64,000 bases of DNA from Vitis vinifera. Lineage: Eukaryota; Streptophyta; Magnoliopsida; Vitales; Vitaceae. Shown one piece after another: positions 17,847 to 63,036 of this stretch (its first letter is position 1; each line of letters starts with the position of its first letter). The DNA is taken from contig NC_081812.1 of the NCBI RefSeq assembly GCF_030704535.1, forward strand, positions 22,543,501 through 22,607,500. Direction: 5' to 3'. The position numbers and the translations under genes are program-made. The notes beneath the pieces were generated by a model that did no database searches, had not been told where the DNA came from, and saw only the letters and a list, made by a program, of their open reading frames with translations.

Positions 17847-17870
17847 TGGATTTGGAAGAGACCGAGTCAC

Positions 17871-17905
17871 TCTGAGAGAGAGAGAGTGAGAGAGAGAGAG
17901 AGGGG
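17871..17905. repeat. (GA)n stretch in the LRR gene leader
   Basis: A GA-rich run, read as CT repeats in the minus-strand transcript, just upstream of the start codon. CT-rich leaders are common in plants, so this may be part of the core promoter or 5' UTR as well as a microsatellite. Confidence 0.7.
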
Positions 17906-17936
17906 AGCTGGCTGGTTATGTTGCCTCAGTCTTTTG

Positions 17937-26681: not shown

Positions 26682-27200
26682 TTAGATTTTATCGAGCTTT
26701 TCAGCTTTGACAACAGGGTTGGCTTTAGCAATAGCATCCCGTGCAGCAGTCCGGTAATCAAAGGGGCAGTCATGTTTGTCAGAGTAGCGATGAACTGCAC
26801 AAAAGAGGTTACCACATTTGCAATTGAAACCCGTTAAACCTACACGCTTTCGACATGCGGTGCACCGATTTGGTCCCTCCTTGACCTTGGACTCAATGAT
26901 CTGGTTTGAGGATGAGTCATTGGAAGCTTCAGCAGAAATGGCCTTCACCTCCACTGGTCCAGCTTGCACATCCACGGTACCAGCAACAATGGGCTCCTTT
27001 CCATTGCCGCTAGAGCTTCCATTCACAATGCTTCCAATGGATGATGCTGCAAGTTTGGCTTGTTCTTGCTTCAGGGCCAAGTCCTTGTGGCACTTGGAAC
27101 ACATATTCATGGTGGCAGCACTCCCAAAGAAGCCACAGTTATTAATGCAAAGAATTGGGCCTTCTGGAGCTTGGCATCCTGTCTCATCATGAGACTCCAT
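26682..27200 (-). CDS. A20/AN1 zinc-finger stress-associated protein (SAP)
   Basis: A single coding exon of 172 residues. The N-terminal A20 finger has Cys18, Cys22, Cys34 and Cys37 (C-x3-C-x11-C-x2-C). A Ser/Gly-rich linker (about 50-108) follows, then a C-terminal AN1 finger at about 113-150 with Cys113, Cys116, Cys127, Cys129, Cys134, His137, His143 and Cys145. This is the full architecture and normal length for plant SAPs, which are intron-free in the coding part. Family knowledge: SAPs bind ubiquitin, some act as E3 ligases, and many are induced by abiotic stress. The transcript has a leader intron at 27213-28285 (donor ATCAG|GTGAG, acceptor GTGCAG), as is usual in this family. Start choice is clear: the ATG lies 12 bases after the acceptor. 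Confidence 0.95.
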
Positions 27201-27212
27201 CTTTTAACCCTC

Positions 27213-37568: not shown

Positions 37569-41472
<3,904 letters not shown>

Positions 41473-41941: not shown

Positions 41942-42127
41942 TCAGTGCAAGTAGAAGGCGAAGAATGAGAGGACGGAGGCTCCGACCAACGACCCCAGAA
42001 CAGGCAAAGTTGCTTGGGCAGCATTGGATGGTCCTGGTGCGGGAGACATGACCTCATCTGAAGCCATGGCGGCGCTCATGGAGGCGGCAGCGATGAGAAC
42101 AGCGCATGAGATCTTCTTCATGTCCAT
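41942..42127 (-). CDS. AGP23: Arabinogalactan peptide, AGP23-like
   Basis: 61 residues. A signal peptide ([20 protein letters not shown]) is followed by a very short mature part with the SPAPGPS motif, whose prolines would be hydroxylated and O-glycosylated. A small-residue region and a hydrophobic C-terminus ([17 protein letters not shown]) then act as a GPI-anchor signal. The pattern matches Arabidopsis AGP23/AGP40-type peptides, which are noted for pollen expression. It is the only AG peptide of the window on - and differs from the array to its right in sequence (MKK start, APGP core). A TATAAAA box lies on - at 42272-42266. Confidence 0.88.
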
Positions 42128-44741: not shown

Positions 44742-44942
44742 ATGCATCCCGCCACTTTCGCTGCAATCCACATAATGATGATCGCATTTCTAGTGTTCGC
44801 GTTCGGATCTCCGGTTACGGCACAGGACGCCATAGCGCCTTCACCGGAAATGGACACCGGAGCTGCTTTTGCGCTGCCGGTTTCTGGTATTTTGGTTGTT
44901 TCTTCTGTTATAATATCTCTGAGCAGGGCTTTGTGGTGGTGA
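44742..44942 (+). CDS. AGP: Arabinogalactan peptide, divergent first member of the + array
   Basis: 66 residues: a signal peptide (about 1-27, ending GSPVTA), a mature core QDAIAPSPEMDTG, and a hydrophobic GPI signal (ALPVSGILVVSSVIISL) ending in an unusual Trp-Trp. The order TA-QD, PSP core, GAAFALPVSG matches the downstream members (SA-QD, PAPAPSPDAG, SAFSLPLSG), but the signal peptide does not start MAQVS. It has only one or two candidate hydroxyproline sites, fewer than the others. A TATA-like CTATAAATT lies near 44650, about 90 bp upstream. Confidence 0.75.
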   Translation: MHPATFAAIHIMMIAFLVFAFGSPVTAQDAIAPSPEMDTGAAFALPVSGILVVSSVIISLSRALWW

Positions 44943-45876
44943 ATTTCGAAGTTTTGGTACGTTGTCTGTAACTATGCCTCTGTTGCTGAGTATTGTGTGG
45001 ATGTGTGGTGAAGGTAAAAGAGGCTTTGTGCGATGTTTTTATGTTTCTGGTGGAGAGGAGGAGAGATGTGATTATGATTTTGCAATTGATGTGATTTTAT
45101 GAATGATAAATAAATTCACATTAATTAATTCTTTTTTTTTTTCTCTGTTCTGTTATCAAAGTTCTTCCAAAATAAATAAAAAATAAATTCTAATTAAAAA
45201 AAACACACTTACACACAAAAAAGTTATATATTAAAAAAATTAAAATTAAAAGCAGTTTCTTTATAAGCCAAACTAAGCTGTGTACCGGCTTTAAGATGTT
45301 GTTGGCTTTTCTTAAATGTGAATTTTCAGGATCGAGATATTTAGATTGTCATCAAATCAAGTGGATCTTCTGTAAATCCTAATCGAAAATATATAATTAA
45401 GAAAAATTCATATTTATATATTCTTAAAACAAATTATCATTATGCATTAGCATCTAAATATAAAAATATAAAATAAGAATACAATCAAAAGTATAAAACT
45501 TATTTAAAATTTACAAAAATGATAATATATACCTAGAAAACATTAATATTTCTAATTTCAAAAAGGCAACAGCAGAGGCATATACCCCTCCACCTGATTA
45601 ATGTATTTTTAATTTATTATGAATAAAATTAAATAAATTTAATTTAAATAAATATAAAGACATAAAACTTAGAAACCAAACGATCAATCTATGAAAAAAA
45701 TTCTTGACCATGTTTGTGCTAATATTATATAATTAAAAATAATGAAAAATAATCCCAAATAATTAAATTAAATTAGATTTGAAATAATTTTCCATCATGT
45801 CTCTTCGAGGAAGAAATTTTTTTAAGAAACGATGGCACAGCAAAGTAAAATGTCACAGAGCCCACCACCAACCTGG

Positions 45877-45962
45877 TCAGCTATTTGTACACGTGGCAAT
45901 TATACGTGGCTGCTAAATTTTCACACTGGGGTCCACAGTTCCTCTAAAATCCCCTATTTATA
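45877..45962 (+). promoter_or_regulatory. Degenerate array-type promoter of the pseudogene at 46070
   Basis: TCAGCTATTTGTACACGTGG resembles the TGAGCTGTT element and flank of the intact copies but is altered. CACTGGGGTCCACA and TATTTATA (45955-45962) follow in the usual order. The promoter is recognisable but has decayed together with the gene. Confidence 0.5.
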
Positions 45963-46069
45963 GACTCCTTGTTCACAAACCCTGGTCATACTGTCAGTGT
46001 CCGATTCCTGAGTCTGTGTTTCCTACTTTCCTCTGAGCTTTGGAGTTGGTTCATCTTCATCATTCACCA

Positions 46070-46262
46070 ATGGCGTAAGATAGCATCGGCCTTCGTGCTC
46101 ATTCTCGCGGTGGCGATCTTTGCGGCCGCTACCACTGTCTCGGCGAACAATGAGGCTCCGGCGCCTGCTCCGTCTGCTGCATCATCGTTCTACTCACCGG
46201 TGTCCAGTGTTTTTGTTGTCTCTTTGGTCGCCTTCTCTGTTTTTGCTCTCTTGAAACATTGA
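46070..46262 (+). pseudogene. AGP: AG-peptide pseudogene, early stop and frameshift
   Basis: The start region is homologous to ATGGCGCAAGTTAGCATCG of the intact copies but reads ATG GCG TAA, a stop at codon 3. Compared with GCGAAGGCC in the others, 5 bases are missing shortly after, so the remaining frame (AFVLILAVAIFAAATTVSA, PAPAPS core, hydrophobic end ALLKH) is out of phase with this ATG. No other in-frame ATG lies upstream in that frame; only a TTG is found. The GPI signal is intact in itself. The locus looks untranslatable as an AG peptide. Confidence 0.85.
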
Positions 46263-47384
46263 GTTTCGATGCGTTGAAGATTGCGTGAGGCGATTTAGGA
46301 TTCCATGGGATTCATTCATTCGCTGCATTAGTTTTATAAATGAATTTATTGTGATCGCTGCATTAGTGTTAATTTATTCTAATGTATTGATCTGTTATTC
46401 CCTTTCTGGATCTCTGTTCTTGCCTCGGCAATTACTGTGATTAATAAAGTATCCTTTGTCAGTCTCTGCAATAGATTCTAAAAATATGAATGATCTATTC
46501 TTGATGATTTTGCCACAATTTCTTGCTGTTGATTCTTTTATTACAAGCAGAACTAGGCAAAACAAAAATTAAGTGCTTGTTTGGAACCTCTTAATGAAAA
46601 CAGATTTATGACCTTTGGAGCAGAAAAATTATCCTGAAAACAAACAGTGTTTTATTAGCGTAAGTTGTATGTTAACCTTTTTTTCTGGCACGAAAACATT
46701 GAAGTATTTACAAAAGGATTGGACTTATTTTGGTTTCTCAAATTTAAGAAATTCAATCTATAACGAAAAGTGAGAGAATAGGTTTTCTCAAATTGTGGAA
46801 TAGCCTAAACACTTTCACATATTTTTTATTTCAGATTTCAGTAATAATAGGATGGTTCCCTTTCTTTTGATTTTACCGAAATCAAGCAAATAAGCCATTA
46901 GAGTGTTTTGTTGTATATGTAGATTGATGCATATTATTGTAGTGGATAATAAAACAAATTAATTATTATTTTTTTGTATGTATTTTTAAGAGAATTATTT
47001 ATTGTGTTTTTTCATAAAACATTGCAAATAATTTTTTAATATTATAAATGATTTTTTAGATTTTAAAACTATTTTTAAAATTTGGTTAAACACCAATTTT
47101 TTGTTTTTTAAGTATATATTTTTAAACTAAAAACACTTTTTAAAATTATTGTCTAAAGCAAATGATACTATGATAAAACAGTTAAAAAAAATAGTACTTT
47201 GAAAATTTTGCTTTTAAAAGTTAATTATTATTTCATTATTTTATAATTTAGAAGCGTTATTTAATTAAAGTACTTTTGACTATGAGCTTCTTAAGCTTTT
47301 AAGAATATACTAATATAATTATTTGTCAACTTAAGCCTTTTAAACTTTTAAGAGTATAAGAATACAATTTTCAAAATTTGATTT

Positions 47385-47515
47385 AGAGTATGTTTGATAG
47401 TTATTTTGAGAAGTGTTTTTAGTTTTTTTATTTTTTTTTTATTTTTTTATTTTTTTATCTTTAAAATATAAAAAATATTATAAATACTTCATAAAATTGC
47501 TATGAAACGCACTCT
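47385..47515. mobile_element. Small MITE candidate
   Basis: 131 bp with imperfect inverted ends: AGAGTATGTTTGATAGTTAT on the left and AGAGTGCGTTTCATAGCAAT as the reverse complement of the right. The interior is pure AT-rich DNA. No clear target duplication, so confidence is moderate. Confidence 0.4.
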
Positions 47516-47757
47516 TATTCAAATGTTAAATGTGAGTTAAGAAATATATTTTTATTAAATTAAAACTTTTAAAACAAAATAAAAAATCTAATTTTTTTAA
47601 TAAGAATATTTTTAAATATAATTACTAAACATAAAATTCAATTTCCTATACTAGATTAAGATATTTCTTCTAATATAATTATGAGATAATTTTGACGAAG
47701 AGATTGTCATGAACAAAATTTATTGTTTACGAAAATACACTAATTTTTAGTTATTAA

Positions 47758-48223
47758 TAGGGATGACAATGGGGCAAATTTTTTCGACTACCTGTCCTGC
47801 TCCATCCCTAATGGGACGATGTTCAATTTTAATAAACGGGTTTGAAATTTTTTTTAGAAATCGGGGGCAGGGGATTTTCCCCGTCCCATCCTAATTATAT
47901 ATAAAAATAATTTAATTTAAAATTTTAAATTATTTTAATTTAATTTTTATTTTAGTATTTTTAATATACAGATAATAATAAAATAAGTTATAAAAATATA
48001 ATAATTTAATTATTTATAAATATATATTTATTTTAATGTAATTAAAAATTTTAAAATAATTTTAAAGAAAATTAAAATTCAAAAAAAAGTTAAACGGAAC
48101 GGGACGGGACGGGGCGGGCATAAGAATTTATCATACATTTAATTTTTTAAATGGGACTGGGATGAGAATTATTTTGAATAAATGGGGTGGGATTGGGATG
48201 GAAGTGACCCGTTGTCATCCCTA
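47758..48223. mobile_element. MITE with GGGATGACAA ends and TA target duplication
   Basis: About 462 bp between TA dinucleotides. Left end GGGATGACAATGGGG, right end reverse complement GGGATGACAACGGG. Internal G/C-rich blocks (ACGGGACGGGACGGGG, GGGGCAGGGGATTTTCCCCG) stand out from the AT-rich surroundings and are typical of this widespread plant element type. No coding capacity. A 2-bp TA duplication suggests a mariner/Stowaway-type or related transposase, but this is not proven. Confidence 0.65.
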
Positions 48224-49025
48224 GTTATCATCTTCTTTAAATGTTTTTTTATATTTATATTTATTGAAAGTCCACATGTGATTGGAGCAAGTAATAACTT
48301 CTTATAACATAGATAACCCTATTCTAGTTATTAGTTATATAAAAAATTATTTTCTTTCAATTATAAGTGCTCATATTTTTAAAAACACAACATTTAGTTT
48401 GTGCTCTCGAAAACACGATGTTTAGTTTGTGTTATTAAGAACACAACTTGGTTCGAATTCTCAATGGCATGACTGATTACTAGGTATTGTTTCATGTGAT
48501 CATAGGGGACTTTTTATTAATGGTACTTTAGTTAATTTTGATATTGATTAATTATAAAAAAGAATATCAACATTAAATAGTTACATGCGATGAGTACCCT
48601 TCTACATTTCACAATTTTGTATTTTCTCAAATTTCACGCTTTTTTCATTTATTAACAATAATAACACTTTTTATACTACAATTATGTTACAAAACACTTT
48701 ATATTCCCTATTAATTTAATTATTTTTTAAATATAATTACAGAAAAAAAAAATTAGTTTATGATGTTTATGTTTAAAATAGAAATATCCATACCATATCT
48801 ATAGGTCGGTCATTAATGAATTTAAATTTGAAAAAGCATAATAATTATCCTTTTTAAGAAAATTGGATAAAATAATCTCTGAAGTAAAAAGGACGACGGA
48901 ACTTCAATGGTAAATCTTTTGTCTTTTGGCCCAGTCCTAGAGAGACGTTAGGTGGTTCTTAAAAGACAAAAGGGAAAAGGTTTGGCGCCTTCTCAGTTCT
49001 CCCACCCAACCGACCTCGGTGTGGA

Positions 49026-49129
49026 CCAATCGGCACATGCAAAATGAGCTGTTGGTACAGGTGGCAGCATCTGACCATCTGTCACTATTCACTGTGGGGT
49101 CCATACGTGATCAAACCGCCTATATATAG
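49026..49129 (+). promoter_or_regulatory. Promoter module of AG-peptide copy A
   Basis: CCAAT (49026-49030), ACATG (49035-49039), TGAGCTGTT (49045-49053), GTGGGGTCC (about 49094) and TATATATA (49121), with the ATG 147 bp after the TATA start. The same order occurs in copies B, C and D, and partly in E and the pseudogene at 62833. Confidence 0.75.
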
Positions 49130-49267
49130 ACCCCTCGTTCTAAAGCCCCAGCCAGATCTAGTCGGTTCTCCAGTCCTGAATAGTTCCTCCTGTTTCTCCG
49201 TCTCCGGTTGGTTCTACTTCTCTGTTCTCTTTCAGATTTCGAGTTGGCTTTGCTCTATCCTTCATCA

Positions 49268-49471
49268 ATGGCGCAAGTTAGCATCGCGAAGGCCTTAATG
49301 CTCGTTTTCGTAGTCGCGATCTTCTCTGCGGCTGCCACAGTCTCGGCGCTGGATAACTCACCTGCGCCGGCCCCATCGCCGGACGCTGGATCGGCGTTCT
49401 CCCTCCCGCTATCCGGCGCTGTTGTTGCCTCCTCTCTCGTTTTTTCTCTACTCGCCTTTTTGAAGTACTGA
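49268..49471 (+). CDS. AGP: Arabinogalactan peptide, array copy A
   Basis: 67 residues: a signal peptide starting MAQVSIAKALMLVFVVAIFS and ending ATVSA; a mature core of about 15 residues LDNSPAPAPSPDAG with Ala-Pro/Ser-Pro repeats expected to carry arabinogalactan; a likely GPI attachment around DAGS; and a hydrophobic tail (LPLSGAVVASSLVFSLLAFL) ending KY. AG peptides of this kind (AGP12-15/21 group in Arabidopsis) are GPI-anchored to the plasma membrane or cell wall. The residue after the cleavage site is Leu (CTG) where most copies have Gln (CAG), a change shared only with copy B. The upstream ORF extension is ignored because MAQVS is conserved in all copies. Confidence 0.92.
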   Translation: MAQVSIAKALMLVFVVAIFSAAATVSALDNSPAPAPSPDAGSAFSLPLSGAVVASSLVFSLLAFLKY

Positions 49472-50270
49472 GTTTGGCTATGAGAAGTTTTTATCGTGGA
49501 GATCGTGGATTCATTCTGTAGAGACTTTGATGATTGTATTTGATTTATTCATGATCTACATTATTTATTTATTTTTAAGTAAATAAAATTTTAATTAATT
49601 TTGTTACATTGATCTGTCTATTCCCTTTCTGATTCCCTCTTACGCAAATTTTGCTTGCTTTTGATTTAAAAAAGAATGCTTCAGAAATCACAGTGAAAAG
49701 AATATTCATCAGGATTATAGATTTCAAAAGCAACTCCAACAAATTAGTATATTGTTATCAATCAATATTTGAAGATTAATTTTTTTTTAAATTTAATTAG
49801 GAGATAAATTTGCAATGTAAAATTCTGGATAAAAATTATTTAGCATGAATCATTTTTTATGATGCAACGCCCCTGGAGGTGTAAAATGGAGAATTAAAAA
49901 GGAACTAAAGCATCAATGGCAACTTTTTTCTAGAAAATGACATTAAAATTTGAATTTAAGTCACAATCCACTATCCACATTGGTTATTAAGATTAAAATA
50001 GAGTTATTGGATGAAAGATTTTGAGTGTACAAGAATTTTAGAAGATTTAATGTTCTTCTACATTGAAAGAAACATATTTAGGAACATTCAAATCTAAAGT
50101 AAATTTTTTTTATTTCTTTAAATCTAGGTCCGTTTATATTTAATAATGCATGCTTTCTTCCTTTGCTTAGGATCTAGAGGCCTAGGAAAGTTTTTTCTGC
50201 TCTTAATGTGATAATGGGATAGGGAATGAAGAAATCTAAAATTTCCTACAACAAGAATATCATAGCCTAA
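49472..50270. other. 3' flank of copy A
   Basis: 3' UTR and spacer. It is homologous to the 3' flank of copy B for about 180 bp, and again patchily around 49864-49930 versus 54294-54365. Confidence 0.6.
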
Positions 50271-50279
50271 TTTGAAGTT

Positions 50280-52330
50280 GAGAAATGTATGTTAATGTTA
50301 TACTTTGTGCAATAAATTTAGTAAAATAGTCACCAAGAATGTTATTGCTAATTTGATAAAAGGAGAAAAATTAGATGACAATAATTATGATATATAACGT
50401 AGAAAAATTCATTACCTATTAAGTGAACAAGAGATCTTGAAGACCTTAACTAATGTCATGATCCAATCCAAAGAAGAGAATTTAGCTTAACATCACCATG
50501 ATTTGGAAACTTATTATTCTTTGTGTTAGAAAAAAAAAAAAAAAAGACTAATCCAACCTACGGTAATCACCCTAGGGGGGTGAATAGGGTGATGATCTAT
50601 TTTTCTAAATTTAAACTATGTGAATGTTAGAAACATATATATGCAAGTATATAATAAAACAATATAAAAACAATTACAAATAAAGTAAAGGAATGGGGAA
50701 AAGATAATGTAAACATAAGATTTTTATAGTGGTTCGGCGCAACCCGACCTACATCCATTCTCCTCCAACATTAATCCCAAACTTAGATTATTCTTTTCAA
50801 ATATATGCAAATAATTTCACAAACTCCTAGTATAAAACTTTAGACTCAAATGATACATGTAAACTAGGATTGAATAGTGTACTAAAGATATACAAGTTTT
50901 AGAACAATGATGTACTAAAAAACACTTTTCCAAAGCTCAAATATATTTAAGAAATGTTTAGGAAGGTTAAACTCATAAAATAATAAAGATTTGAGTCTTT
51001 TTATAAAATAAAAAAGTCAAACTAGTCATTGGGGGGTCGACCGATCAATTTGGGGGTCGAATGATTAACTAGGCGTTAGTATTTAATATTTGGCAAGTGG
51101 TCGTTGGACCTCGATTGGTTACTATTCATACATTGACTGGTTTAGGTGGGGGTCGATCGGTTATTGTTTACACATTGACCGATAGAATAATTGTTTTGGA
51201 AGAGATATAAGGTTTTTTTGCACCCCTTGACGGATTAAGCTAGGGGGTCGACCGATTCCTCATCCAGTTCAACCAGTTGAGCCGTTTTTGGCTTAATAAC
51301 CAACCTTTTAAATAAGTTTGGAAAACATTTGATATAAGGATTTAGTTGAAAACATGGAATCATCTAAATTTAAAAAATTTAAAACAAAATAACTCTTAGA
51401 TGATTTTGGTGCATAAGTAAAGAATATAATGCATGAAAATCATAGTGCACCAATAACCTTACAAAGAGATCTCATAAAATTTGGGTTTTGAAAAACACTT
51501 CTCTTTGAGATCTTCTTTTTCTTCGTAATTTTTCTTTGACTTGATTTGTCTTTGTAATTGTCATTTTGAAAATCGTCTTACCTAATCACACTTAAAATAT
51601 AATTATTAGTTCTAAACCATATTTTGTTATCATCAAAACCAAGATTAATCAAACTTTGGTTTCACACTTGTGTTAAAAGAGACTATTGTTCATGTTTCAC
51701 TATAGTAACATGCACAATGACTTAATATGGGAGTTTGAGAATTGTCCCACTGCTTAAGACATGTGGAATAAGCTTAAGATTGCCTATGGTTTGACATATG
51801 CAACTAGGTTGCGAGTGCTCACTTTGTAGTTCGAGTAATATGTCTTGGACCCCAAACACACCATGTTTAAACATTTTAGGATAATGTCAGTAATAATTCG
51901 TGATTTAAAGGTAGTCAATAATAACCTAACTTATGAGTAACAAGTCACAATTGTTATTTGTTATTTACTTGAATCATAAGGACAAATAAAACTTAATACT
52001 CATGCATAATGAGAATATTAAAACTTTTACTAATATTTTTCACCAGATTAAGTTAGAAAATGAGTGTTTAGGGCTATGACATACCACACTTGTCGCCCAT
52101 GCAGGGTACAACATGGTAATAAGCCTAAACATAAGGGACAAGGAAAACACGGTTAGACAATTGGAAACTTGGGCCGAAAAAAAGGAAATCATAATAAAAA
52201 TAGAAAAAAAAAAAAAAAAAAAAGCAAATGAGGTGAAAATAAGGATAAGCATAAAAAAAAATGCTACAACTATGGAAAACTAGGTGTCTCTGCTCGTGAG
52301 TGTATTAAGCTAAAGAAGGTATAGCCATAT
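50280..52330 (+). mobile_element. Decayed Ty1/copia gag with a nested insertion
   Basis: In broken frames on + the segment reads like a copia gag start: EKLDDNNYD, RRKIHYLLSEQEILKTL and DLETYYSL up to 50520, then SNMHNDLIWEFE, TAKDMW-like and TYATRLRVLTL from about 51700. Near 52262-52320 is a damaged zinc knuckle, CYNYGKLGVSAREC, in which the second Cys and the His of CCHC are lost. Many stops are present. No pol domains or LTRs were seen. It separates copies A and B of the AG-peptide array. Confidence 0.65.
50515..51680. mobile_element. Insertion of about 1.1 kb nested in the gag relic
   Basis: The gag reading is interrupted exactly where an 8-base repeat TTGTGTTA occurs at both edges (about 50518 and 51670). 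The inserted DNA begins with an A-run, contains CACCCTAGGGGGGTGAATAG (about 50568), and has several GGGGGTCGACCGATT-like repeats at 51030-51260. No ORF. The type is not resolved; it could be a non-autonomous retroelement. Confidence 0.5.
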
Positions 52331-53617
52331 CCTAATTTTCGACATGGTGGACTGTAGGCTTAGGAGCAATAAAACATGTAACAAGGAATAAAGTGACATT
52401 GGGTGGTTGGCGCCGTGTTTTTACTTGACGTGTTTTATAGTTTCTTAAAAAGTTTTTTCCTCCTCAAGGAGACAACGATGGAAAATTAATTCATATTTAA
52501 TTTATATCAATTGGTATTATTTTTCATTTTTTAATTATATAATATTGGCACAAATATGGAGAGATTTTTTTTCATAGATTTGTTTCTAAGTTTTATTTCT
52601 TTATATATTTATTCAAATTAATTTTATTTAATCTTATTTATAATAAATTAAAAATACATTAATTAGGTGGCGGGGTATGCTTCTACTGTTACCTTTTTAA
52701 AGTTAGAAATATTAATGTTTTCTAATTATATATTTTATTTTTGTAAATTTTAAAAATGCCTCTTATTTCTTATTTTTTATTTTTAAAAATAGAAAATAAA
52801 AATAAATTTGACAATCATATATAAAAAGGTACATTTGTTTATGTTGACACATCATAGATGAGTGTTGTTTGTTGTACAGGAAAAAAATAAATATTATTAT
52901 AGAATTCTTATTTTACAACCTTTTAAAAGCTTAATTATTGTGAAATAATATTTAATGTAATTTAATAATGAATATATATATTTACAAAATTCATATTTTT
53001 TTATCAACATACCCCATATTAATATTAAATATAACAAATTATATTATATAAATATTAATTTTTTCAACAACATAACTTCAAAATATCTATTATTATTTCT
53101 TATATCATTTTTAATTATTTTTTAAGTTTTTATTAATTTTCATTTTATCAAAATTATGTCTCAAAATATTTATTGATATTTTTATTTATATATCTATAAA
53201 ATCAAATTACTAATACATCAATAAAAATCAATATTTTTATCCTTACTTACAAAGCGCTTTATATTTTCTATCAATTTAATTATTTTTAAAATATAATTAC
53301 TGAGAAAAAATAGTATATAATGTTTATATTTAAAATAAAAATATCCATATATCTAGGTCAGTCAAGATTACTAATGAATTTAAATTTCAAAAAAAAAAAA
53401 ATATATATATATATATATATAAACAGGCACAATAATTATCGTTTTAACAAAAATAAGATAAAATTATCTCTGATGTGAAAAGGAGAACAGAACCCTGCTT
53501 GAATGGGAACTCTTTTTCTTTTGGTCCAGCCTAGAGAGACGTTAGGTGGTTCTCAAAAGGCGAAATAAGATTTAAGGAAAAGGTTCGGCGCCTTCTCCCA
53601 CCCAACGGATCTCGCTG
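52330..53617. other. AT-rich spacer upstream of copy B
   Basis: Non-coding. A (TA)n run lies at 53400-53421. From about 53230 the sequence is homologous to the region upstream of copy A. Confidence 0.6.
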
Positions 53618-53621
53618 TGGA

Positions 53622-53737
53622 CCAATGGGCACATGACAAATGAGCTGTTTGGTACAGGTGGCAGCATCTGACCATCTGTCACTATTCACTGTGGGGTCCA
53701 CACGTCTCCCCCACACGGTCACACCGCCTATATATAG
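53622..53737 (+). promoter_or_regulatory. Promoter module of AG-peptide copy B
   Basis: CCAAT (53622-53626), ACATG (53631-53635), TGAGCTGTT (53641-53649), GTGGGGTCCACAC (from 53691) and TATATATAG (53729-53737). The TATA start is 117 bp before the ATG. Confidence 0.75.
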
Positions 53738-53845
53738 ACCCCTGATTCTGAAGCATTAGCCATATCTACTCATTCTCCCGAATACTTTCTTCTGCTTCTC
53801 TGTTCTCTTTCAGATTTCGAGTTGGCTTTGCTCTATCCTTCGTCA

Positions 53846-54049
53846 ATGGCGCAAGTTAGCATCGCGAAGGCCTTTATGCTCGTTTTCGTAGTCGCGATCT
53901 TCTCTGCGGCTGCCACAGTCTCGGCGCTGGATAACTCACCTGCGCCGGCCCCATCGCCGGACGCTGGATCGGCGTTCTCCCTCCCGCTATCCGGCGCTGT
54001 TGTTGCCTCCTCTCTCGTTTTTTCTCTACTCGCCTTTTTGAAGTACTGA
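53846..54049 (+). CDS. AGP: Arabinogalactan peptide, array copy B
   Basis: 67 residues, identical to copy A except Phe for Leu at residue 11 (KAFMLV). By eye the 204-base coding sequences differ at one base (TTT versus TTA), while the promoter and 3' UTR carry many more changes and indels. It shares the derived Leu at the mature N-terminus. Signal peptide, SPAPAPSPDAG core and GPI tail are as in copy A. The near identity of the coding part points to a recent duplication or gene conversion. Confidence 0.92.
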   Translation: MAQVSIAKAFMLVFVVAIFSAAATVSALDNSPAPAPSPDAGSAFSLPLSGAVVASSLVFSLLAFLKY

Positions 54050-55184
54050 GTTTGGCTATGTGAGAAGTTTTCATCGTGGAGATCGTGGATTCACTCTGTA
54101 GAGACATTGATGATTGTATTTGATTTATTCATGATCTACATTATTTATTTATTTTTAAGTAAATAAAATTTTAATTAATTTTGTTACATTGATCTGTCTA
54201 TTCCCTTTCTGATTCCCCCTTTCGCAAATTCTATTTTGTCATTAAAAATTATGCTATAAGTTTAATAAATAATAAAACAATATGGATTTGAACCTCCTTT
54301 AAACTAAAATTCAGTTGTGGTGCAAAATGGACTAAAAAGGGACTAATGCATGAATGGTAACTTTTTTTTTTTTTCTTAAAAAAAAAACATTAAATGAGTA
54401 TTTTTGTCTTTTATGTTTCCTCGTGGATGCTTGCTATTGAAAATCTTATTTTTTTTATTTTCCTCTTGTATTGAACAACTAGGTTCCATTTTTTTCCATC
54501 CCAACCACGAATGGTTAGGGGTCTATTCTTATGGTATGTTTGAAAAAAATCAATATTCAATACATTCATGTCTTACCACTCATTAAAAATAGCTAAAATA
54601 TCTTTTAAAATTTATTTTTAAATTTTGAAATAGTAAAACTTTTTTACCCCTTCGATTTCTTAAAATAATTTTTTTTTAAATACTTGTCTTCGTTTTACTT
54701 AAAGACTCAAAACAATTGAACTTAGGTACAAAATAACGAAAAGTAAAAAAAAAAAAACGCACACACAAATATACATATAAATAAATAAAACTTAAGTCCA
54801 ATAATCATCTATTAACACCACTTTTATTTTATAACACTATTGATCGTCATACATTCTACATAATTAAACTATGATGGAAAACTATTTCTTGAAGTTTAAT
54901 TCTGAGATAATTTTAACAAAGAGATTATCATGATCAATGATGACGTGGATTAATTGTCAAAAATATCAAACATCGGATTAGGGCCCTCCTAAGTAATTAA
55001 AGATATCCATAGGTAAAAATAGGAGAAAATAATCCCTCAAGGGTAAAAAGGAGAACACCGGTTCTCTGGTGACCTTTTCCCTTTGGGCCCAGTCCTAAGA
55101 GACGTTGGGTGGATCTCAAAAGGCAAAACAAGATTTAAGGAGAAGGTTCGGCGCCTCCTCCAACCCAACCGACCTAGCTGTGGA
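54050..55184. other. Spacer between copies B and C
   Basis: 3' UTR of B (homologous to A for about 180 bp), then AT-rich DNA. The last 150 bases, with GGTTCGGCGCC and AAACAAGATTTAAGG-like sequence, belong to the duplicated upstream unit. No genes. Confidence 0.5.
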
Positions 55185-55289
55185 CCAATCGGCACATGCC
55201 AAATGAGCTGTTGGTACAGGTGGCAGCACCTGTCCAGCTGTCACTATTCACCGTGGGGTCCACACTTCTCGCGCAAACCTCCTATATAT
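55185..55289 (+). promoter_or_regulatory. Promoter module of AG-peptide copy C
   Basis: CCAAT (55185-55189), ACATG (55194-55198), TGAGCTGTT (55204-55212), GTGGGGTCCACAC (from 55253) and TATATAT (55283-55289). The TATA start is 152 bp before the ATG. Confidence 0.75.
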
Positions 55290-55434
55290 CGACCCCTCGT
55301 TCTGAAGCCCAGTCACATCTTCCAGGTGCTCTCCGCTCGAATAGTTTTCCTGTGTCTCTGTCTCCGGTTGGTTGGTTCTATTTCTCTGCTCTCTTTCAGC
55401 TTTCGAGTTGGTTTTAGTGCTCTGTCCTTCATCA

Positions 55435-55638
55435 ATGGCGCAAGTTAGCATCGCGAAGGCCTTCGTGCTCCTTTTCGTTGTCGCGATCTTCTCTGTGGCT
55501 ACCACAGTCTCTGCGCAGGATAACTCCCCTGCGCCGGCTCTATCGCCGGACGCTGGATCTGCGTTCTCCCTCCCTCTATCCGGCAGTGTTATAGTCTCCT
55601 CTCTCGTGTTTTCGCTTCTCGCTCTCTTGAAGTACTGA
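55435..55638 (+). CDS. AGP: Arabinogalactan peptide, array copy C
   Basis: 67 residues. A signal peptide starts MAQVSIAKAFVLLFVVAIFS and ends TVSA; the mature core is QDNSPAPALSPDAG, where one Pro of the PAPAP run is Leu, so one fewer hydroxyproline site is expected than in A and B. GPI tail SGSVIVSSLVFSLLALLKY. Upstream DNA over about 400 bp is similar to that of copies A and B, placing C in the same subgroup. The Gln at the expected mature N-terminus is the ancestral state. Confidence 0.92.
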   Translation: MAQVSIAKAFVLLFVVAIFSVATTVSAQDNSPAPALSPDAGSAFSLPLSGSVIVSSLVFSLLALLKY

Positions 55639-57151
55639 GTTCGGATATTTGAGAAAATTTTAATTTTTATGTGAGGATTGAGGATTGTACTTGATTCATT
55701 CATGATCTATATTATTTATTTATTTTAAGGAAATAAAATTTATTTTATTTTATCACATTGTTCTGTTTATTCCTGAGAAATGGAGAACTTTTTGTATGCT
55801 TGGACCTCACGAAACATTGCACAAACTTCATGTGGACCAAATCTAATAATGAATTTGAATTTGAAAAACAATAATAACAAATTGGGATCATTCGTCATGT
55901 TGTGGGTAATACTTTTCTAAGGATTAAACATTTGAAGCGATTTCTTGTCCGAAACCACTTATAATTACGCGTGTTTGACCCTGTTTCAGTTTTGTAATTT
56001 TTGTCTTTGTTTTTCCTCAACATTATATTAAATTTTTTTGAATATTTAAATTGGGTTAGAAAAACTTTTTATATTCCCAATAATAAGATCGAAAGTAATT
56101 GCCATACGTTTAATATATATACAATTTCTAATAATGAATATAGATTTTTAAAATACAAATATCAAACGCGTATTTGGAAATTGTTTATTTTTAATAATAA
56201 AAAACAAATCTACAACTTTAAAAATAGAAAGGAAATCAACGAAAATTAATCTTATAACTAAGAAAGCGGTTTGACAAAATTTTGATAAAAAAAATATGTT
56301 TTTTTAGAAATATTTTAAAAATAAGTAAATTTCATTAGTGTTTTTAATGTTTAAAAAAAATATGGATTTGAAATTTTATTAAATGTTTTTATTATTTTAA
56401 ATTAAATGGAAAGTAAGAAAAATAATAATAATATTTGATAAAATTTTAAATGATTGATGATTATATAGATTTAATTCAAATTTTAAATGAGATAAATGAA
56501 ATTAATCTGTTTATTATTATTTTGAGGAATATGGAATGATTTTTATATTTTATATAAGTATATAATATTTTTTTTTAAAAATGATCATCAAAATTAAAAA
56601 TATTTGAATTTTCAATGATTTTTTTTATAGAATTTTTAATAATAATTTTGTATAAATAATGCCACATAAACGACAAAATATCTTTGGTGATTGGGCTTTA
56701 CGTGTAAAAAAGAAAGCTGAAAATGGATCACCTAGCTTTGGTGACTTTTCGTCAGTTCCACTTTCCAAGAGAGCCGTTATAGATTTTTCAAAGTAGAGAT
56801 ATTTTTGAAAGCAACGTAAAACGGCCACTTCTTGGCTTTCGTGTTTCACACGTAATTAGAAATTTAGAAGAAGCATCTTTTTCTTTGTTTTGTTTTGTTT
56901 TTTTTCCACACCCATGAATTGAATGGTATGTAGAGAGTTGAATGGATCGAATCATAAAAAGCCAGCCCCTGACCGAGTCACTGAGTCATTATGTCTCAAT
57001 AATGATTCCTAACGGTGAATCGTCGAATTCAGATTTCTTCCAAACTAAATAGTTTGTAATTTATATTTCTATATTGAGATGTGGGGCATTAGAGACAAGG
57101 AACGTGTCAAATAAGAAGTACTGCGCCACCCATCGCCAGCCCCGCCGTGGA
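55639..57151. other. Spacer between copies C and D
   Basis: AT-rich, no supportable ORF. The 82-codon ORF at 56001 is Asn/Lys/Ile-rich, as expected by chance in such DNA. Confidence 0.5.
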
Positions 57152-57259
57152 CCAATCAGCACATGCCATTAATGAGCTGTTTGGTATACGTGGAAACCTA
57201 TGACCAACGGTTCCCATTCACACTAGACCCACGCGTCTTTCCAAAGCTACCTATTTATA
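57152..57259 (+). promoter_or_regulatory. Promoter module of AG-peptide copy D
   Basis: CCAAT (57152-57156), ACATG (57161-57165), TGAGCTGTT (57173-57181) with a 7-base spacer, and TATTTATA (57252-57259). The GTGGGGTCC box of A-C is replaced by a weaker TAGACCCAC. The TATA start is 121 bp before the ATG. Confidence 0.7.
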
Positions 57260-57372
57260 GAACTCATCTTCTCAAACCCTAATAGCATATTCTCTCAAGA
57301 GTTCGAAAACACTTTCATCTCTAACCTCTCTGTTTTCTCTATTTCTCGTTGTCTTACGGAGTTTATTCAAAC

Positions 57373-57570
57373 ATGGCCCAAGTTAGCACCGTGAAGGCCA
57401 CTATGATCCTCTTTGCTATTGTGATGTTTGCTGCAGCTGCTACAGTCTCGGCACAAGAAGTTTCTCCGACTCCATCGCCGGATGTTGGATCAGCCTTTTC
57501 CGTACCTCTCCCCAATGCCATGATTGTTTCATCTCTGCTCGTTTCTCTCATCGCTCTCATAAAGCATTGA
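57373..57570 (+). CDS. AGP: Arabinogalactan peptide, array copy D
   Basis: 65 residues, starting MAQVSTVKATMILFAIVMFA. The mature core is the shortest of the intact MAQVS copies: QEVSPTPSPDVG, with Thr-Pro and Ser-Pro in place of Ala-Pro pairs, so glycan attachment may differ. GPI tail PLPNAMIVSSLLVSLIALI ending KH. An extra in-frame ATG exists 24 bases upstream, but MAQVS is conserved across the array and is chosen. Confidence 0.9.
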   Translation: MAQVSTVKATMILFAIVMFAAAATVSAQEVSPTPSPDVGSAFSVPLPNAMIVSSLLVSLIALIKH

Positions 57571-59400
57571 AATGGGATTCGAGATGTCGAAATTATCTTT
57601 TATGTATTGATTTTATAGAAGGATCGAGTATTGTATTGTACTTATTATTGAGGATTGTATTTGATTTATGGATGATTCTCATTATTTTATAAATAAATAA
57701 ATAAAATTTTAATTATCTTTGATTGTTATCATTTTTGTTTTATTATTGCACTTTTTGATTGCAAAAAAATGCTTTAAAGCATTGATTTTATTATATGTCT
57801 CTATTTTTCTCATTTGATAATTTGGATGAGAATTGAAATATTATAGGATCGCATATTAACATTTAAACATGTATTTAATAGCAAAAATTCAACCGATTAC
57901 CTTGATTTATGTCATGGGAAGTCATTTCTTCTCCCTCTGATATCCAATAAGCTGCTTTTTGGGTGTGTGATTGTTCGAGAATTATGGATCAATGAGCTCT
58001 TCCCTTACCTTCCAAAATTCAGTCCAAAGTGCAAATATATGTGTTTGAGTCAGTCAAGTAAATTAAGATGAATCCATAAAAAATAAAACAATAATATGTA
58101 TCTAGTCCCCTTATGGATCACAATACAAAAAATAAATTAACACTTATTTATGATATTATCAAATTGATTATGTAAGTCCATACATAAAAATTCCAACAAA
58201 TTTTACATGTTTTTTCTTATTTAATAATTTTAGATATTTTTCTTTAATTTAAAATAAATAAGATATTTAACAAAATATTAAATTAATGAAAGTTAATTAT
58301 ATTTAGACAAAACTAAGTGAAATTATCCCTTAGTTTAAATTGGTAAGATGCTTGTACTTTTTCTTAAAGTAGGTGTCCTAGTCTAGAACAACCAGCTTTA
58401 CAGCTTACCAGATTTCCAGAATTATTACCCATGTGCCAACCCAAAATTTGGCACCAAAATCATTTTATTTTATTTTATTTCTAAATGTTAATGGGTAATT
58501 ACAACATACAAATTTTTTTGGAGAAAATTATGCTTTATAGAACTTGAAATTGACCATATGAATGACATAATTGACAGAAAATATATGAAATTGTAAAAGA
58601 TAAAAATACCAAAGAAAATGACACATAAAATCTTTTTAAAAATTGATTGATTGCACACATGGTAATGATCCCGAAAAATATCTTAATTTTTTATTTGATT
58701 AATATAAGAAAATGTTATTTACAAAATATCTTTCTTTTTTTTTACAAAAACCAATTTCTATTTGAATTAGAAAATATTTATAAAAAAAATAATTTTATGT
58801 TATAAAAAAAAACTCTCAAATTTATTAAGAAAATAACTATAATTTATTTATTTTTATGTTTCTAATTTTCGGTTTAGATTTTTTACCCAATTGGTCAAAG
58901 CACAATTTTCCCCATTTTTTATTCACATTCATCATTAAATGAATCAAATATTTGAAGGCCTTTCTCCTTCAATAATGTGCTACAGGGGAATTGAACGTTG
59001 GGCTAATGCCACCCTCACCATTTGCGTGACAACAAGGATTTGAATAGCAGCAATTAACTATTGCCAGCTTGGAAAAAGAAACCTTAGAAAGAAAAAAAAA
59101 ACTAACGTTCATTATTCAAAATTAATCAGTCTTTTTGTATTTTATATTATTAAATTAATAATAAATATTATAAAAGAACAATTGGGTGTCACATGCCGAC
59201 ATGAGGAGTCTAAGACCAACTGGCACATAACACAATCAGTTCCCGGGAAACTCGGCTTTTATCATGTTTAATAATAAATAAATAAAAAATGATTTAAGAT
59301 TAATATATTACATTATTTTTCTTATTCTTACAATTTAAAATTGAATTTAAAAGTAAAGTAATTATCGAGGAAGAATCCACCACACTGTACCCACTCAGCC
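57571..59400. other. Spacer between copies D and E
   Basis: AT-rich DNA. No ORF, tRNA or transposon end could be supported. A tRNA-like A-box at about 58333 was examined and rejected. Confidence 0.5.
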
Positions 59401-59506
59401 ACATGCGCCCGTTGAGCTGTTGTCTAGTGGCTGCCTGGCTGGGCCGCTTCACCAGCTGTTATTATTCGCAGTGGGCCCTACTTGCCACTCCAACGTCCTA
59501 TATATT
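59401..59506 (+). promoter_or_regulatory. Promoter module of AG-peptide copy E
   Basis: ACATG (59401-59405), TGAGCTGTT (59413-59421, 7-base spacer), GTGGGCCC (about 59471, matches the class II TCP core GTGGNCCC) and TATATATT (59499-59506). No CCAAT at the usual place. The TATA start is 129 bp before the ATG. Confidence 0.7.
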
Positions 59507-59627
59507 TGGGGTGGCTTCCTCTCTCGGTCTCACCAGCCCTAAGCCACTCTCAAAATCACTCGCCTCCTTTCTCTCTCTAACTCTCCCTCAGTTTCTCACC
59601 GCCGATCAGCTTCTCCACTGTTCACCA

Positions 59628-59834
59628 ATGGCGCAAGTTGGCATGACGAAAGCCTTAATGCTTGTCTTCGCAGTGGTGGCAATCTTCTCTACGGCTGCTA
59701 CAGTGTCGGCTCAAGATGGCGCCCTGGCACCGGCTCCGTCGCCAGACGTCGGATCTGCGTTCTCCGTACCTCTCTCCGGCGCTGTTATGGCTTGCTCTCT
59801 TGTCCTCTCTCTTCTCGCTCTCCTGAAGCCTTGA
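59628..59834 (+). CDS. AGP: Arabinogalactan peptide, array copy E
   Basis: 68 residues, starting MAQVGMTKALMLVFAVVAIF. Mature core QDGALAPAPSPDVG, then the GPI tail SGAVMACSLVLSLLALLKP. One Val more in the signal peptide than copies A-C. A Cys occurs inside the hydrophobic tail. MAQV is taken as the start because of conservation; a longer upstream frame starting ATG at 59403 would read through the promoter module and is not credible. Confidence 0.92.
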   Translation: MAQVGMTKALMLVFAVVAIFSTAATVSAQDGALAPAPSPDVGSAFSVPLSGAVMACSLVLSLLALLKP

Positions 59835-60768
59835 GTTCCGATCCATGAGAGATTGCAGATTTTGTATATGGATTGAAATTTGAGGATCGTATTAAATTTA
59901 TTCTTTGTTCATTTGGGAGCATTATTATTGTTACCATTTTGTGTTATTATTTTATTATCATAATGATATAAGAGATTTATACTTATTATGTCGGATCCGA
60001 TCTGCGTGATGCTCTCTCTTCTCTTTTCCTCAAGAGATTGCCATTCTGATTTTCTTCCAACGAAGCGAATTGTTCTTGCAAAAGAAAACACTAAACCATA
60101 AAGTATTTTTATATTTAAACACGCATGCATATGCTGTTTTCCATATTTATTTTCATTGAAATATCATAGAGAATTTTTTGTAGGTAATTTTATTTAATAT
60201 TTTTTAAAAATCTAATCACTGATATCTTCCCTTTTAAGCTTTTAATTTATTAATGGAATTATTAAAATTAGAAGTTAAATAGAGATGATTACTGACTTAG
60301 TAATATGTATTATAATAAGAAAAATATATTTAATGTAATAATTGTAAATTTATTTAAATTTAAAAATTTTCACTTTATTCAATTAAAATTTCTTATACTA
60401 ACCTTTTATTTATATATTTCTGGACCCCGGCCGCATGATTTGCGTTGATGCAAGATAAAGTCTACAAATTAACGGATATTTCCAAAAGAAGAAGGGTAAC
60501 GGTCATCACCAAATGTTATTTTATTATGTTAATATTTAATAGTTTTTAATTTCCTTTTTATAGAAAAATAATACAGAGGGACCCACCAACATAGCTGTAA
60601 AGACACCAACACTGCACTTCACATGTCCATTTCAGCGTACGGTTGAATTGTGACACGTCATCAGAGTTGGTCTCCAAAGTGGGCCCCACACGCCGCTGCA
60701 ATTCACGAACGCTGTTGCTTATTATTCTCTCCCGGTTTCCAGATTGTTCTGTTGTTTATCTTTCAGTA
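59835..60768. other. Spacer and promoter of copy F
   Basis: AT-rich to about 60580. Closer to copy F are ACATG (60621), a CACGTCA G-box-like site (60654) and GTGGGCCCCAC (60679-60689, TCP-type), but TGAGCTGTT is absent and no clear TATA box is seen. Confidence 0.55.
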
Positions 60769-60975
60769 ATGGCGCAAGTTAGCATGAACAAAGCCTTGAT
60801 GGCCGTCTTCACAGTCGCGGTAGTCTTATCTGCGGCCGCTACAGTATCGGCGCAGGATACTTCGCCGGCCCCGGCTCCATCTCCAGACGCCGGATCGGCG
60901 TTCTCCCTACCTCTCCCCGGCGTTTTCATTGTTTCCTCTCTCTTCTTTTCCCTTCTCGCTCTTTTGAAACCTTGA
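60769..60975 (+). CDS. AGP: Arabinogalactan peptide, array copy F
   Basis: 68 residues, starting MAQVSMNKALMAVFTVAVVL, with mature core QDTSPAPAPSPDAG (full PAPAP run) and GPI tail PLPGVFIVSSLFFSLLALLKP. It is closest to copy E in its KP end. Its promoter lacks the TGAGCTGTT element found in six other loci, so its expression may differ. Confidence 0.92.
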   Translation: MAQVSMNKALMAVFTVAVVLSAAATVSAQDTSPAPAPSPDAGSAFSLPLPGVFIVSSLFFSLLALLKP

Positions 60976-61262
60976 GATTTATGGATTGTATTGGATTCAT
61001 TCTTTGTTTATTGAATGATAATGTTTATGAACAAAAATCATGGTATTATTTTCGTTGTTCATGGGAGGGCTTAAAGCTTCGATTCACTTATTGCATAAAT
61101 AGAAGCTTGAATCTCAATTTGATAGTGCAATAGCACAAAAATAAAATAAAATAATTGATCTATAAACGTATTCGATTGGATCAGTCATAATTATAGAAAG
61201 AAACCACTTCTTGGAGGCTCCTTTTCAATATTTTTTCTTAATGAGAATACCAAATAATAAAA

Positions 61263-61322
<60 letters not shown>

Positions 61323-62645
61323 ATTGAATAACAATTATACTAATCGAATTGAGTGGTTGAATTTTCCCTTTTGAGAAAACAAAAAAAAAGAAAAAAAGGA
61401 AAGGAAACGCTAGGTAAGATTTTGGGATCGGAAGATTATTCAAGGTTTTTTAAATTGGGTCAAAAATTCATATTTTATGCACATTTAAGCTTAAAATCCA
61501 AATAAAGTGTAAAAATTAAGTTGAATGATATTTTTCATTAATCCTTAAAATATTTTTAAACCCTTTGCATTGAGTGTAAATTTTATTTATTTTTCCATTT
61601 TTTTTCATTAAGTATTAATCATTTATAACTTTTTTTTTTTAGAGATATTGAATCTTTTTATTCTTATTATAAGCAAAGATAAAAAAATTTCATATAAAAT
61701 TTAATGGATAATCAATAAATGAAATTTAATTATTTTTATTATTTTCATATAAAAAATACTACTAAACAAGGTTTTTAATTTTTATTTTTTAATTAAATGT
61801 TTTTTTAATCATATTACCATTTTTTAGAAAGTATTTTTTAAAATAGTTTTTGAACTTAATTTTTATTTACTTATAATTTAAAATATAAAATAATGTTGAT
61901 TTTCAATTATTTATAAAAAAAAAATTTTAAAAATAATAAAAAATTCAAATGGTTAAAATATAATTATTATGGTTACATGAATAATGGTGCGATAAAAAAG
62001 AAACTTATATGAAAGTTTAATGGGTATTTTGATATTTTAATATCTTATATGATTTCGATATGTTATGTTATACTTATCAAACTTTAATTTTTGGCCCAAA
62101 ACACAATTATACCTTTTAAATTTAACCGTACCAATCACGGACTAAAGTGTCAGCTAAAAAAAAACATAATGGAACTTTTGGTTTCGCCGCAGAGATGTGT
62201 TGAATAGCTTTTTTTTTAACGTTTCTTCTTTTTCTTTTCCTACGGTAAAAATTAGGGTTTGAAAACGACATACAACGGTTGGTTATGCTTTATATTGAAA
62301 ATAAATATTGTCTTTAAATATTTTTATTCAAAAATTCAGTTTTCAATTATTTTTTTTAGTAGAACAGATGGGATATTTTTTTTATATCAAATATATTTAA
62401 GTTCTAGTTTTTAAAATAAATTTCCATTTACCTTATCGTCTAAAAATATTTTGCATTTTTGAAAAATAACCTGCATTTCTTATTTATTTTTTTAATAATA
62501 ATAAACGAATACACAAAATGTGATGAATGTGATGATGCTAAAAGCATAGCTGAAAAAGGAGAGGGAAAAAAAAAATTGTTTCCATATTTTTTCCTTTCCT
62601 TTCCAACAAATACTTTCGGCGTGAGCCACCGACATCAACGCTGGG
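60976..62645. other. Spacer between copy F and the pseudogene
   Basis: AT-rich. A long (AT)n microsatellite lies at 61266-61320. No gene. Confidence 0.6.
61266..61320. repeat. (AT)n microsatellite, about 27 units
   Basis: 55 bases of uninterrupted AT repeat, the longest in the window, likely variable in length. Confidence 0.95.
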
Positions 62646-62750
62646 ACATGCCGAAGTTGAGCTGTTCGGTGAAGATTGTGGCACGTCACCATATGTCACA
62701 TCATTAGTGGGGCCCACACACTGTTTTTAAACTCCTCTGGCTCTATATAT
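62646..62750 (+). promoter_or_regulatory. Promoter module of the 62833 locus
   Basis: ACATG (62646-62650), TGAGCTGTT (62658-62666, 7-base spacer), GTGGGGCCCAC (62707-62717, TCP-type) and TATATATT (62744). All elements are intact although the coding sequence is broken, which suggests that the break is recent. Confidence 0.7.
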
Positions 62751-62832
62751 TTGACCCTCTAATGCTAGGCGTGACAGACGTTCTAATCTGCTCTCAAAGT
62801 TTCTAGATCATTTCCCTTTTTATCGTTCACTA

Positions 62833-63036
62833 ATGGCGCAAGTTAGCATCATCAAAGCCTTAATGCTCGTCTTCGCAGTCGCGATTATCTCCGCGGCCAC
62901 TACAGTCTCGGCGCAAGATGGTTCTCCGGCGCCGTCTCCGTCTCCAGACGCCGGATAGGCATTTTCCATTCCTCTCTCCGGTGCTGTCATTGCTTCATCT
63001 CTGATCCTGTCTCTTCTCGCTCTCTTGAAGCAATGA
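62833..63036 (+). pseudogene. AGP: AG-peptide locus with a single nonsense codon
   Basis: 68 codons in one frame from ATG to the final TGA, homologous throughout to the array: start MAQVSIIKALMLVFAVAIIS, core QDGSPAPSPSPDAG, tail LSGAVIASSLILSLLALL. At 62956-62958 the codon after DAG is TAG where the others have TCG or TCC (Ser). The product would stop after 41 residues and lose the whole GPI signal, so it would be a secreted, unanchored AG peptide or nothing. There is no other lesion and the promoter is intact. It may be a young null allele or a sequencing error. Confidence 0.85.

What the first reader, a model, noticed from the sequence alone, without database searches (positions are those of the whole stretch)
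44742..63036. Tandem array of nine arabinogalactan-peptide loci, next to an AGP23-like gene
Nine homologous loci on + within 18 kb (seven intact, two broken), plus an unlike AG peptide on - at 41942. The mature peptides vary in the number and type of X-Pro pairs (PAPAPSP, PAPALSP, PTPSP, LAPAPSP, IAPSP), while the signal peptide and GPI tail are conserved. Only about 12-15 residues reach the surface, so the array can be seen as a bank of slightly different glycan carriers. Genes this short are often missed by annotation.
Basis: partly seen in the sequence, partly recalled or inferred. Interest (0 to 1): 0.75.

Follow-up and report, generated by a model that had tools for sequence, protein, structure and literature searches.

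The report
Grapevine cluster of tiny glycopeptide genes
A row of ten small, related genes, almost certainly from grapevine, each built like a very short sugar-coated cell-surface peptide, sits beside a different gene of the same kind; it is a real but fairly ordinary tandem gene family whose neighbourhood seems older than an ancient genome tripling in flowering plants.

Summary
The window has nine homologous AG-peptide loci on + (seven open, two disabled) plus an AGP23-like gene on -; a tenth, open locus lies 2.3 kb beyond the window edge. The plant is almost certainly grapevine. The same arrangement, AGP23-like gene followed in divergent orientation by AG-peptide genes with an A20/AN1 zinc-finger gene further out, exists on contigs 6, 8 (the window) and, inverted, 13. 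The pairing therefore most likely predates the core-eudicot gamma triplication, and contig 8 expanded most (10 loci against 2 and 3). Among copies C-J, pN/pS is 0.26 in the mature part, 0.40 in the signal and 0.33 in the tail, intervals overlapping. A 99%-identical patch shared by copies C and D suggests gene conversion. This looks like a constrained tandem family of ordinary AG peptides. One oddity: locus I has a TAG at the predicted anchor junction, so it could encode the same peptide unanchored; a young pseudogene is more likely. Pfam's AGP model finds five other places in the genome but none of these.

The parts
41942..42127 (-). AGP23-like AG-peptide gene, 61 aa
44742..44942 (+). Copy A, 66 aa, open, most divergent (IAPSP)
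46071..46262 (+). Copy B, disabled: TAA at codon 3 and the remaining frame shifted; the rest of that frame is open
49268..49471 (+). Copy C, 67 aa, open (SPAPAPSP)
53846..54049 (+). Copy D, 67 aa, open; CDS differs from C by one base
49228..49622 (+). Patch in copy C 99% identical to copy D (390 of 395 aligned bases); 89% just upstream, 55% just downstream (there homology may simply end): probable gene-conversion tract
55435..55638 (+). Copy E, 67 aa, open (SPAPALSP)
57373..57570 (+). Copy F, 65 aa, open (SPTPSP, one X-Pro pair fewer)
59628..59834 (+). Copy G, 68 aa, open (LAPAPSP); the listed ORF also has an upstream in-frame ATG at 59403
60769..60975 (+). Copy H, 68 aa, open (SPAPAPSP)
62833..63036 (+). 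Copy I, in-frame TAG at codon 42 (ORF ends 62958), at the predicted anchor junction; the downstream frame is otherwise open
26682..27203 (-). A20/AN1 zinc-finger (SAP-type) gene used as synteny marker; its two best relatives (80% and 75%) lie in the C6 and C13 regions
40213..41472 (+). Neighbouring open frame (no Pfam hit; NEK-kinase-like C-terminus by recall only) whose best relative (49%) lies next to the C6 AGP23-like gene

Best explanation
A tandem family of ordinary, probably GPI-anchored arabinogalactan peptides in grapevine. Each gene encodes an apparent signal peptide, a 12-14 residue core with 2-4 Ala/Ser/Thr-Pro units, and a hydrophobic C-terminal tail. By the established AGP pathway the signal is removed, prolines are hydroxylated, the tail is exchanged for a GPI lipid, and type II arabinogalactan is built on the hydroxyprolines, leaving a glycan displayed at the outer plasma membrane. 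The ancestral neighbourhood (AGP23-like gene plus AG-peptide gene) existed before the gamma triplication; after it, the contig-8 copy expanded stepwise by local duplication, partly homogenised by gene conversion, under purifying selection on all three parts. Expansion most likely raised dosage or split expression between copies rather than diversifying the peptide. Shown: anatomy, homology, collinearity, constraint, C/D patch. Inferred: processing, anchoring, glycosylation, expression, the gamma date and the function.
For: Ten loci. The 13 full-length open copies of the family have hydrophobic ends, 36-49% PAST and 65-72 aa, inside the published AG-peptide window of 50-90 aa and 35% PAST (PMC5073881, passages). 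pN/pS below 1 in all three parts among C-J. TATA-like word 89-152 bp upstream of the ATG in 9 of 10 array copies, not H (no chance estimate). Three-way collinearity: zinc-finger gene, AGP23-like gene, AG-peptide genes on C6, C8 and inverted C13; the 40213-41472 gene on C6 and C8 only. C/D patch 390/395 identical against 228/257 just upstream, Fisher p 2e-8.
Against: No expression, proteomic or GPI data. Dedicated signal and GPI predictors were not run; only hydropathy and a recalled -3,-1 rule. Not every neighbour is kept: the 40213-type gene has no C13 match among its 5, and a piece of the LRR kinase (16500-17915) had no partner on C6 or C13 at E up to 1e-60, with only 90 of 2189 candidates scored. 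The gene tree resolves little and does not recover the C8 array as one clade (3 changes in both trees, 0% of bootstrap trees with one). The C/D patch limits were chosen after looking at the alignment.
Confidence: 0.85

Rival explanations
1. A diversifying bank: the copies are selected to differ in the number and type of X-Pro units, so that the cell displays slightly different glycan carriers.
For: Cores do differ: 2 to 4 Pro units and several variants among copies; F lacks one X-Pro pair, a difference the substitution counts leave out.
Against: The mature part has the lowest pN/pS and highest identity of the three parts, with overlapping intervals; one core, SPAPAPSP, is shared by four of the eight open array copies (C, D, H, J).
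Confidence: 0.07
2. Mostly relics: neutral tandem duplicates on the way to pseudogenes, few expressed.
For: Two of ten array loci are disabled and one of three C13 copies is cut by an insertion of about 0.54 kb in its tail.
Against: Pooled dN/dS 0.25 among C-J, pairs 0.11-0.51 where dS is above zero, although old constraint does not prove present use; a TATA-like word upstream of 9 of 10 copies.
Confidence: 0.12
3. Assembly artefact: copies of one locus wrongly repeated.
For: C and D coding sequences differ by one base.
Against: C/D identity falls to 78-89% upstream and 55% downstream; every other pair among C-J has dS 0.25-1.2.
Confidence: 0.01

Closest known systems
AG peptides of Arabidopsis, rice, poplar and Brassica rapa (short classical AGPs)
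   Same: Length 50-90 aa, PAST-rich, signal peptide, short Ala/Ser/Thr-Pro core, often a C-terminal anchor signal. Rice has AG-peptide loci with neighbouring numbers, for example LOC_Os04g57260/57270/57280 and LOC_Os12g11610/11620 and 11980/11990 (Table 1 of PMC11941891, read).
   Different: Ten loci in about 22 kb is a longer run than any that the locus numbers of that rice table suggest; no paper listed in my searches describes this grape array.
AGP23 (and AGP40), reported as pollen-specific in Arabidopsis
   Different: The array members are a different AG-peptide lineage; their tissue is unknown, and so is that of the grape AGP23-like gene.
Pfam PF06376 (AGP)
   Same: A family model named AGP (name as given by the tool; that it stands for arabinogalactan peptides is recalled).
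   Different: The model finds 5 places in this genome, on C11 (2), C15, C2 and C16, and none of the array, C6, C13 or AGP23-like loci.
Grapevine F3'5'H array on chr6 (PMC3091711, passages)
   Same: A gamma-duplicated locus that expanded by tandem duplication mainly at one of the homoeologous positions in the grape lineage.
   Different: Different protein; here the expansion is on contig 8.
Anchorless AG peptides such as AtAGP42 (PMC7769824, passages)
   Same: Copy I, if expressed, would be an AG peptide without an anchor signal.
   Different: Copy I got there by one stop codon in a family with tails and is probably a recently disabled gene.

Membership tests
AG peptide (short classical AGP) | 50-90 aa with at least 35% PAST | tested here: met
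   13 of 13 full-length open copies (of 16 loci): 65-72 aa, PAST 0.36-0.49; the AGP23-like gene 61 aa, 0.44
AG peptide (short classical AGP) | N-terminal signal peptide | tested here: inconclusive
   N-terminal 12-residue hydropathy 2.7-3.2 in the 13 full-length open copies and a VSA/VTA-like end in most; no dedicated predictor run
AG peptide (short classical AGP) | Short core with non-contiguous Ala/Ser/Thr-Pro units | tested here: met
   2-4 such units in each of the 8 open array copies
AG peptide (short classical AGP) | C-terminal GPI-anchor signal | tested here: inconclusive
   Small residues followed by a hydrophobic tail in the 13 full-length open copies; no predictor run; 34 of 43 rice AG peptides are listed without a predicted anchor
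AG peptide (short classical AGP) | Arabinogalactan on hydroxyproline of the core | not testable with these tools
   needs Yariv reagent/mass spectrometry
Pfam PF06376 (AGP) | Profile match above cut-off | tested here: not met
   Genome search with the model: 5 matches, all over the cut-off, none at these loci; hmmscan of 13 open copies and of the AGP23-like protein: no PF06376
AGP23-like | Full-length similarity to Arabidopsis AGP23 | tested here: met
AGP23-like | Pollen-specific expression | not testable with these tools
   no expression data for this genome

The most novel reading that the evidence does not exclude
Copy I is not dead: its TAG sits at the anchor junction (Asp-Ala-Gly|stop), so the gene makes the same secreted glycopeptide without a GPI anchor, giving the array one soluble member beside membrane-bound siblings and a natural way to separate the roles of anchored and released AG peptide.
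Probability: 0.08. Interest if true: 0.5.

Novelty: new member of a known kind. Interest (0 to 1): 0.27.

Why it matters
It adds a sizeable, easily missed AG-peptide cluster to what is probably the grapevine genome and suggests that an AGP23-like gene and an AG-peptide gene have stayed neighbours since before the gamma triplication. The naturally stop-truncated copy offers a cheap test of whether the anchor matters for AG-peptide function. None of this changes what is known of how such peptides work.

Tried and rejected
Considered and rejected: (1) signal and tail conserved with a variable core: the counts point the other way, though not significantly. (2) Assembly duplication: flanks too different. 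(3) A shared upstream motif: GGNCCCAC occurs within 400 bp upstream in 7 of 16 loci (A, H, I, C6a and the three C13 copies) and a looser GTGG(1-3)CCA in 7 of 10 array copies; the patterns were written after looking at the alignment and no chance estimate was made, so I build nothing on it. (4) A gene tree to date each duplication: too few columns, mostly open forks. (5) Relaxed constraint in the tail of copy I after its stop: private changes 2 synonymous and 1 nonsynonymous in the tail, too few to judge.

Papers: PMC11941891 passages and its figures-and-tables section; PMC5073881, PMC9755587, PMC9237623, PMC5266747, PMC5372829, PMC7769824, PMC6744718 and PMC3091711 passages only. I found no description of this grape array among the papers listed in searches (titles and starts of abstracts seen); of these, 40 listed 15 of 180 and 60 listed 10 of 56. 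Subscription papers and gene catalogues were not searched. That contigs 6, 8 and 13 form one gamma triplet is recalled; one search states only that chr8 was homoeologous to chr6.
Full report
Identity of the genome. The window is G000:C8:22543501-22607500 of a 495.6 Mb genome in 21 contigs. Of 91 chalcone/stilbene synthase matches listed, 58 by my count of the listing lie on contig 16, most of them in two clusters, and six near-full ones in a block at 23.7 Mb of contig 10, as described for Vitis vinifera chromosomes 16 and 10 (PMC6744718, passages). I therefore take it as grapevine with contig numbers equal to chromosome numbers; this is an inference.

Observation. Nine homologous loci lie on + between 44742 and 63036. 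Seven are open (A, C, D, E, F, G, H). Copy B reads ATG GCG TAA with the rest shifted; copy I has one TAG at codon 42. A tenth, open copy J is at C8:22609820 (L009:2420), 2.3 kb past the window. No other copy was found in the 20 kb after the window or the 10 kb before it, apart from one stretch at E 0.041 in the latter that I take as chance. Genome-wide, searches with three family members give 15 loci at E up to 0.1 or better and the disabled copy B, 16 in all: 10 here, 2 on C6, 3 on C13 and 1 at C8:14.1 Mb (B itself is in the listing). The tool warns that such counts are lower bounds.

Anatomy. The 13 full-length open copies have a hydrophobic N-terminus, a core such as QDTSPAPAPSPDAG and a hydrophobic tail; length 65-72 aa and PAST 36-49%. 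This meets the published size and composition rule for AG peptides (PMC5073881, passages). None of the 13 has a credible Pfam match (best E 0.029, to an unrelated family). The Pfam AGP model PF06376 does work in this genome, with 5 matches over its cut-off on C11, C15, C2 and C16, but none is at these loci. Profile-based annotation would therefore tend to miss them.

Synteny. The AGP23-like protein has three matches, one each on C8, C6 and C13. On C6 the order is zinc-finger gene (-) 2293883, the 40213-type gene (+) 2309242, AGP23-like (-) 2313506, AG peptides (+) 2315183 and 2316698. On C8 it is the same: 22570185 (-), 22583944 (+), 22585445 (-), then the array (+). On C13 it is inverted: AG peptides (-) 28406168, 28414244 and 28420130, AGP23-like (+) 28492272, zinc-finger gene (+) 28524255. 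The zinc-finger family has 18 matches in the genome, but these two are the best outside the window (80% and 75%, next 53%). The 40213-type gene has 5 matches, none on C13. A piece of the window's LRR kinase had no partner in either region at E up to 1e-60, with 90 of 2189 candidates scored. Chr8 and chr6 are reported homoeologous in the paleohexaploid ancestor (PMC3091711, passages); that chr13 is the third member is recalled. The pairing thus most likely predates gamma. Array copies B to J also lack a two-residue piece before the conserved acidic residue (Ser in B) that A and the C6, C13 and 14.1-Mb copies have, which fits expansion on C8 after the triplication. The trees themselves do not show the C8 array as one clade.

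Age and conversion. Pairwise dS among C-J runs from 0 (C/D) to 1.2 (C/F); the grape gamma median is given as Ks 1.22 (PMC3091711, passages). The copies thus seem to have arisen stepwise; the genes are short and these values are rough. C and D are 99% identical from 40 bp before the ATG to 354 bp after it (390 of 395), but 89% just upstream (228 of 257), 78% further upstream, and 55% just downstream. Downstream the homology may simply end, so the case for gene conversion rests on the upstream step and on the near-identical 3' flank; constraint alone would not give zero synonymous differences.

Selection. Among C-J pooled pN/pS is 0.40 (95% bootstrap 0.24-0.61) in the signal, 0.26 (0.12-0.45) in the mature part and 0.33 (0.21-0.46) in the tail. 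All are below 1; the intervals overlap. Without D, and without D and I, the order is the same. Gapped positions, copies A and B, and the C6/C13 relatives were left out of these counts.

Mechanism. By the established AGP pathway (reviewed in PMC7769824, passages) such precursors lose their signal, are hydroxylated on proline, receive a GPI anchor if the tail allows it, and get their arabinogalactan in the Golgi. I infer this for the array; nothing here tests it. AGP23 of Arabidopsis is described as pollen-specific (PMC9755587, PMC9237623, passages); whether the grape genes share that tissue is open.

Disabled copies. Of the 16 loci three are damaged: B near its start, I at the anchor junction, and the third C13 copy, whose tail is interrupted by an insertion of about 0.54 kb. 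I and the C13 copy keep signal and core and lose only all or part of the tail, so both could in principle yield soluble glycopeptide. AG peptides predicted without an anchor are known (AtAGP42, PMC7769824, passages; 34 of 43 rice AG peptides in Table 1 of PMC11941891). With three cases this may well be chance.

Verdict. A real, sizeable AG-peptide tandem array with apparently deep linkage to an AGP23-like gene: a new member of a known kind, ordinary in mechanism.

Noticed in passing
window 62956-62958: The TAG of copy I stands exactly where the siblings C-H and J have the Ser codon of Asp-Ala/Val-Gly-Ser at the predicted anchor junction.
   Followed up: partly
L013:6131-6298 (C13:28420130): Third C13 AG-peptide copy has its tail cut by an insertion of about 0.54 kb while signal and core are intact.
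   Followed up: partly
within 400 bp upstream of copies A, H, I, C6a and the three C13 copies: GGNCCCAC occurs upstream of 7 of 16 family loci, at the same distance (-126) in the three C13 copies; no chance estimate made.
   Followed up: partly
G000:C8:14096383 (L014:4384-4593): A lone AG-peptide gene 8.5 Mb away on the same contig groups with the C13 copies (support 100/99 in the DNA tree), not with the array.
   Followed up: partly
window 45503-45667 and 52593-52755: Pair of inverted repeats (86 and 80 nt arms, 81-87% complementary) about 7 kb apart inside the array, perhaps two copies of one transposable element.
   Followed up: no
window 15077-17915: LRR receptor-like kinase gene on -; a piece of it found no partner in the C6 or C13 regions at E up to 1e-60 (90 of 2189 candidates scored).
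   Followed up: partly
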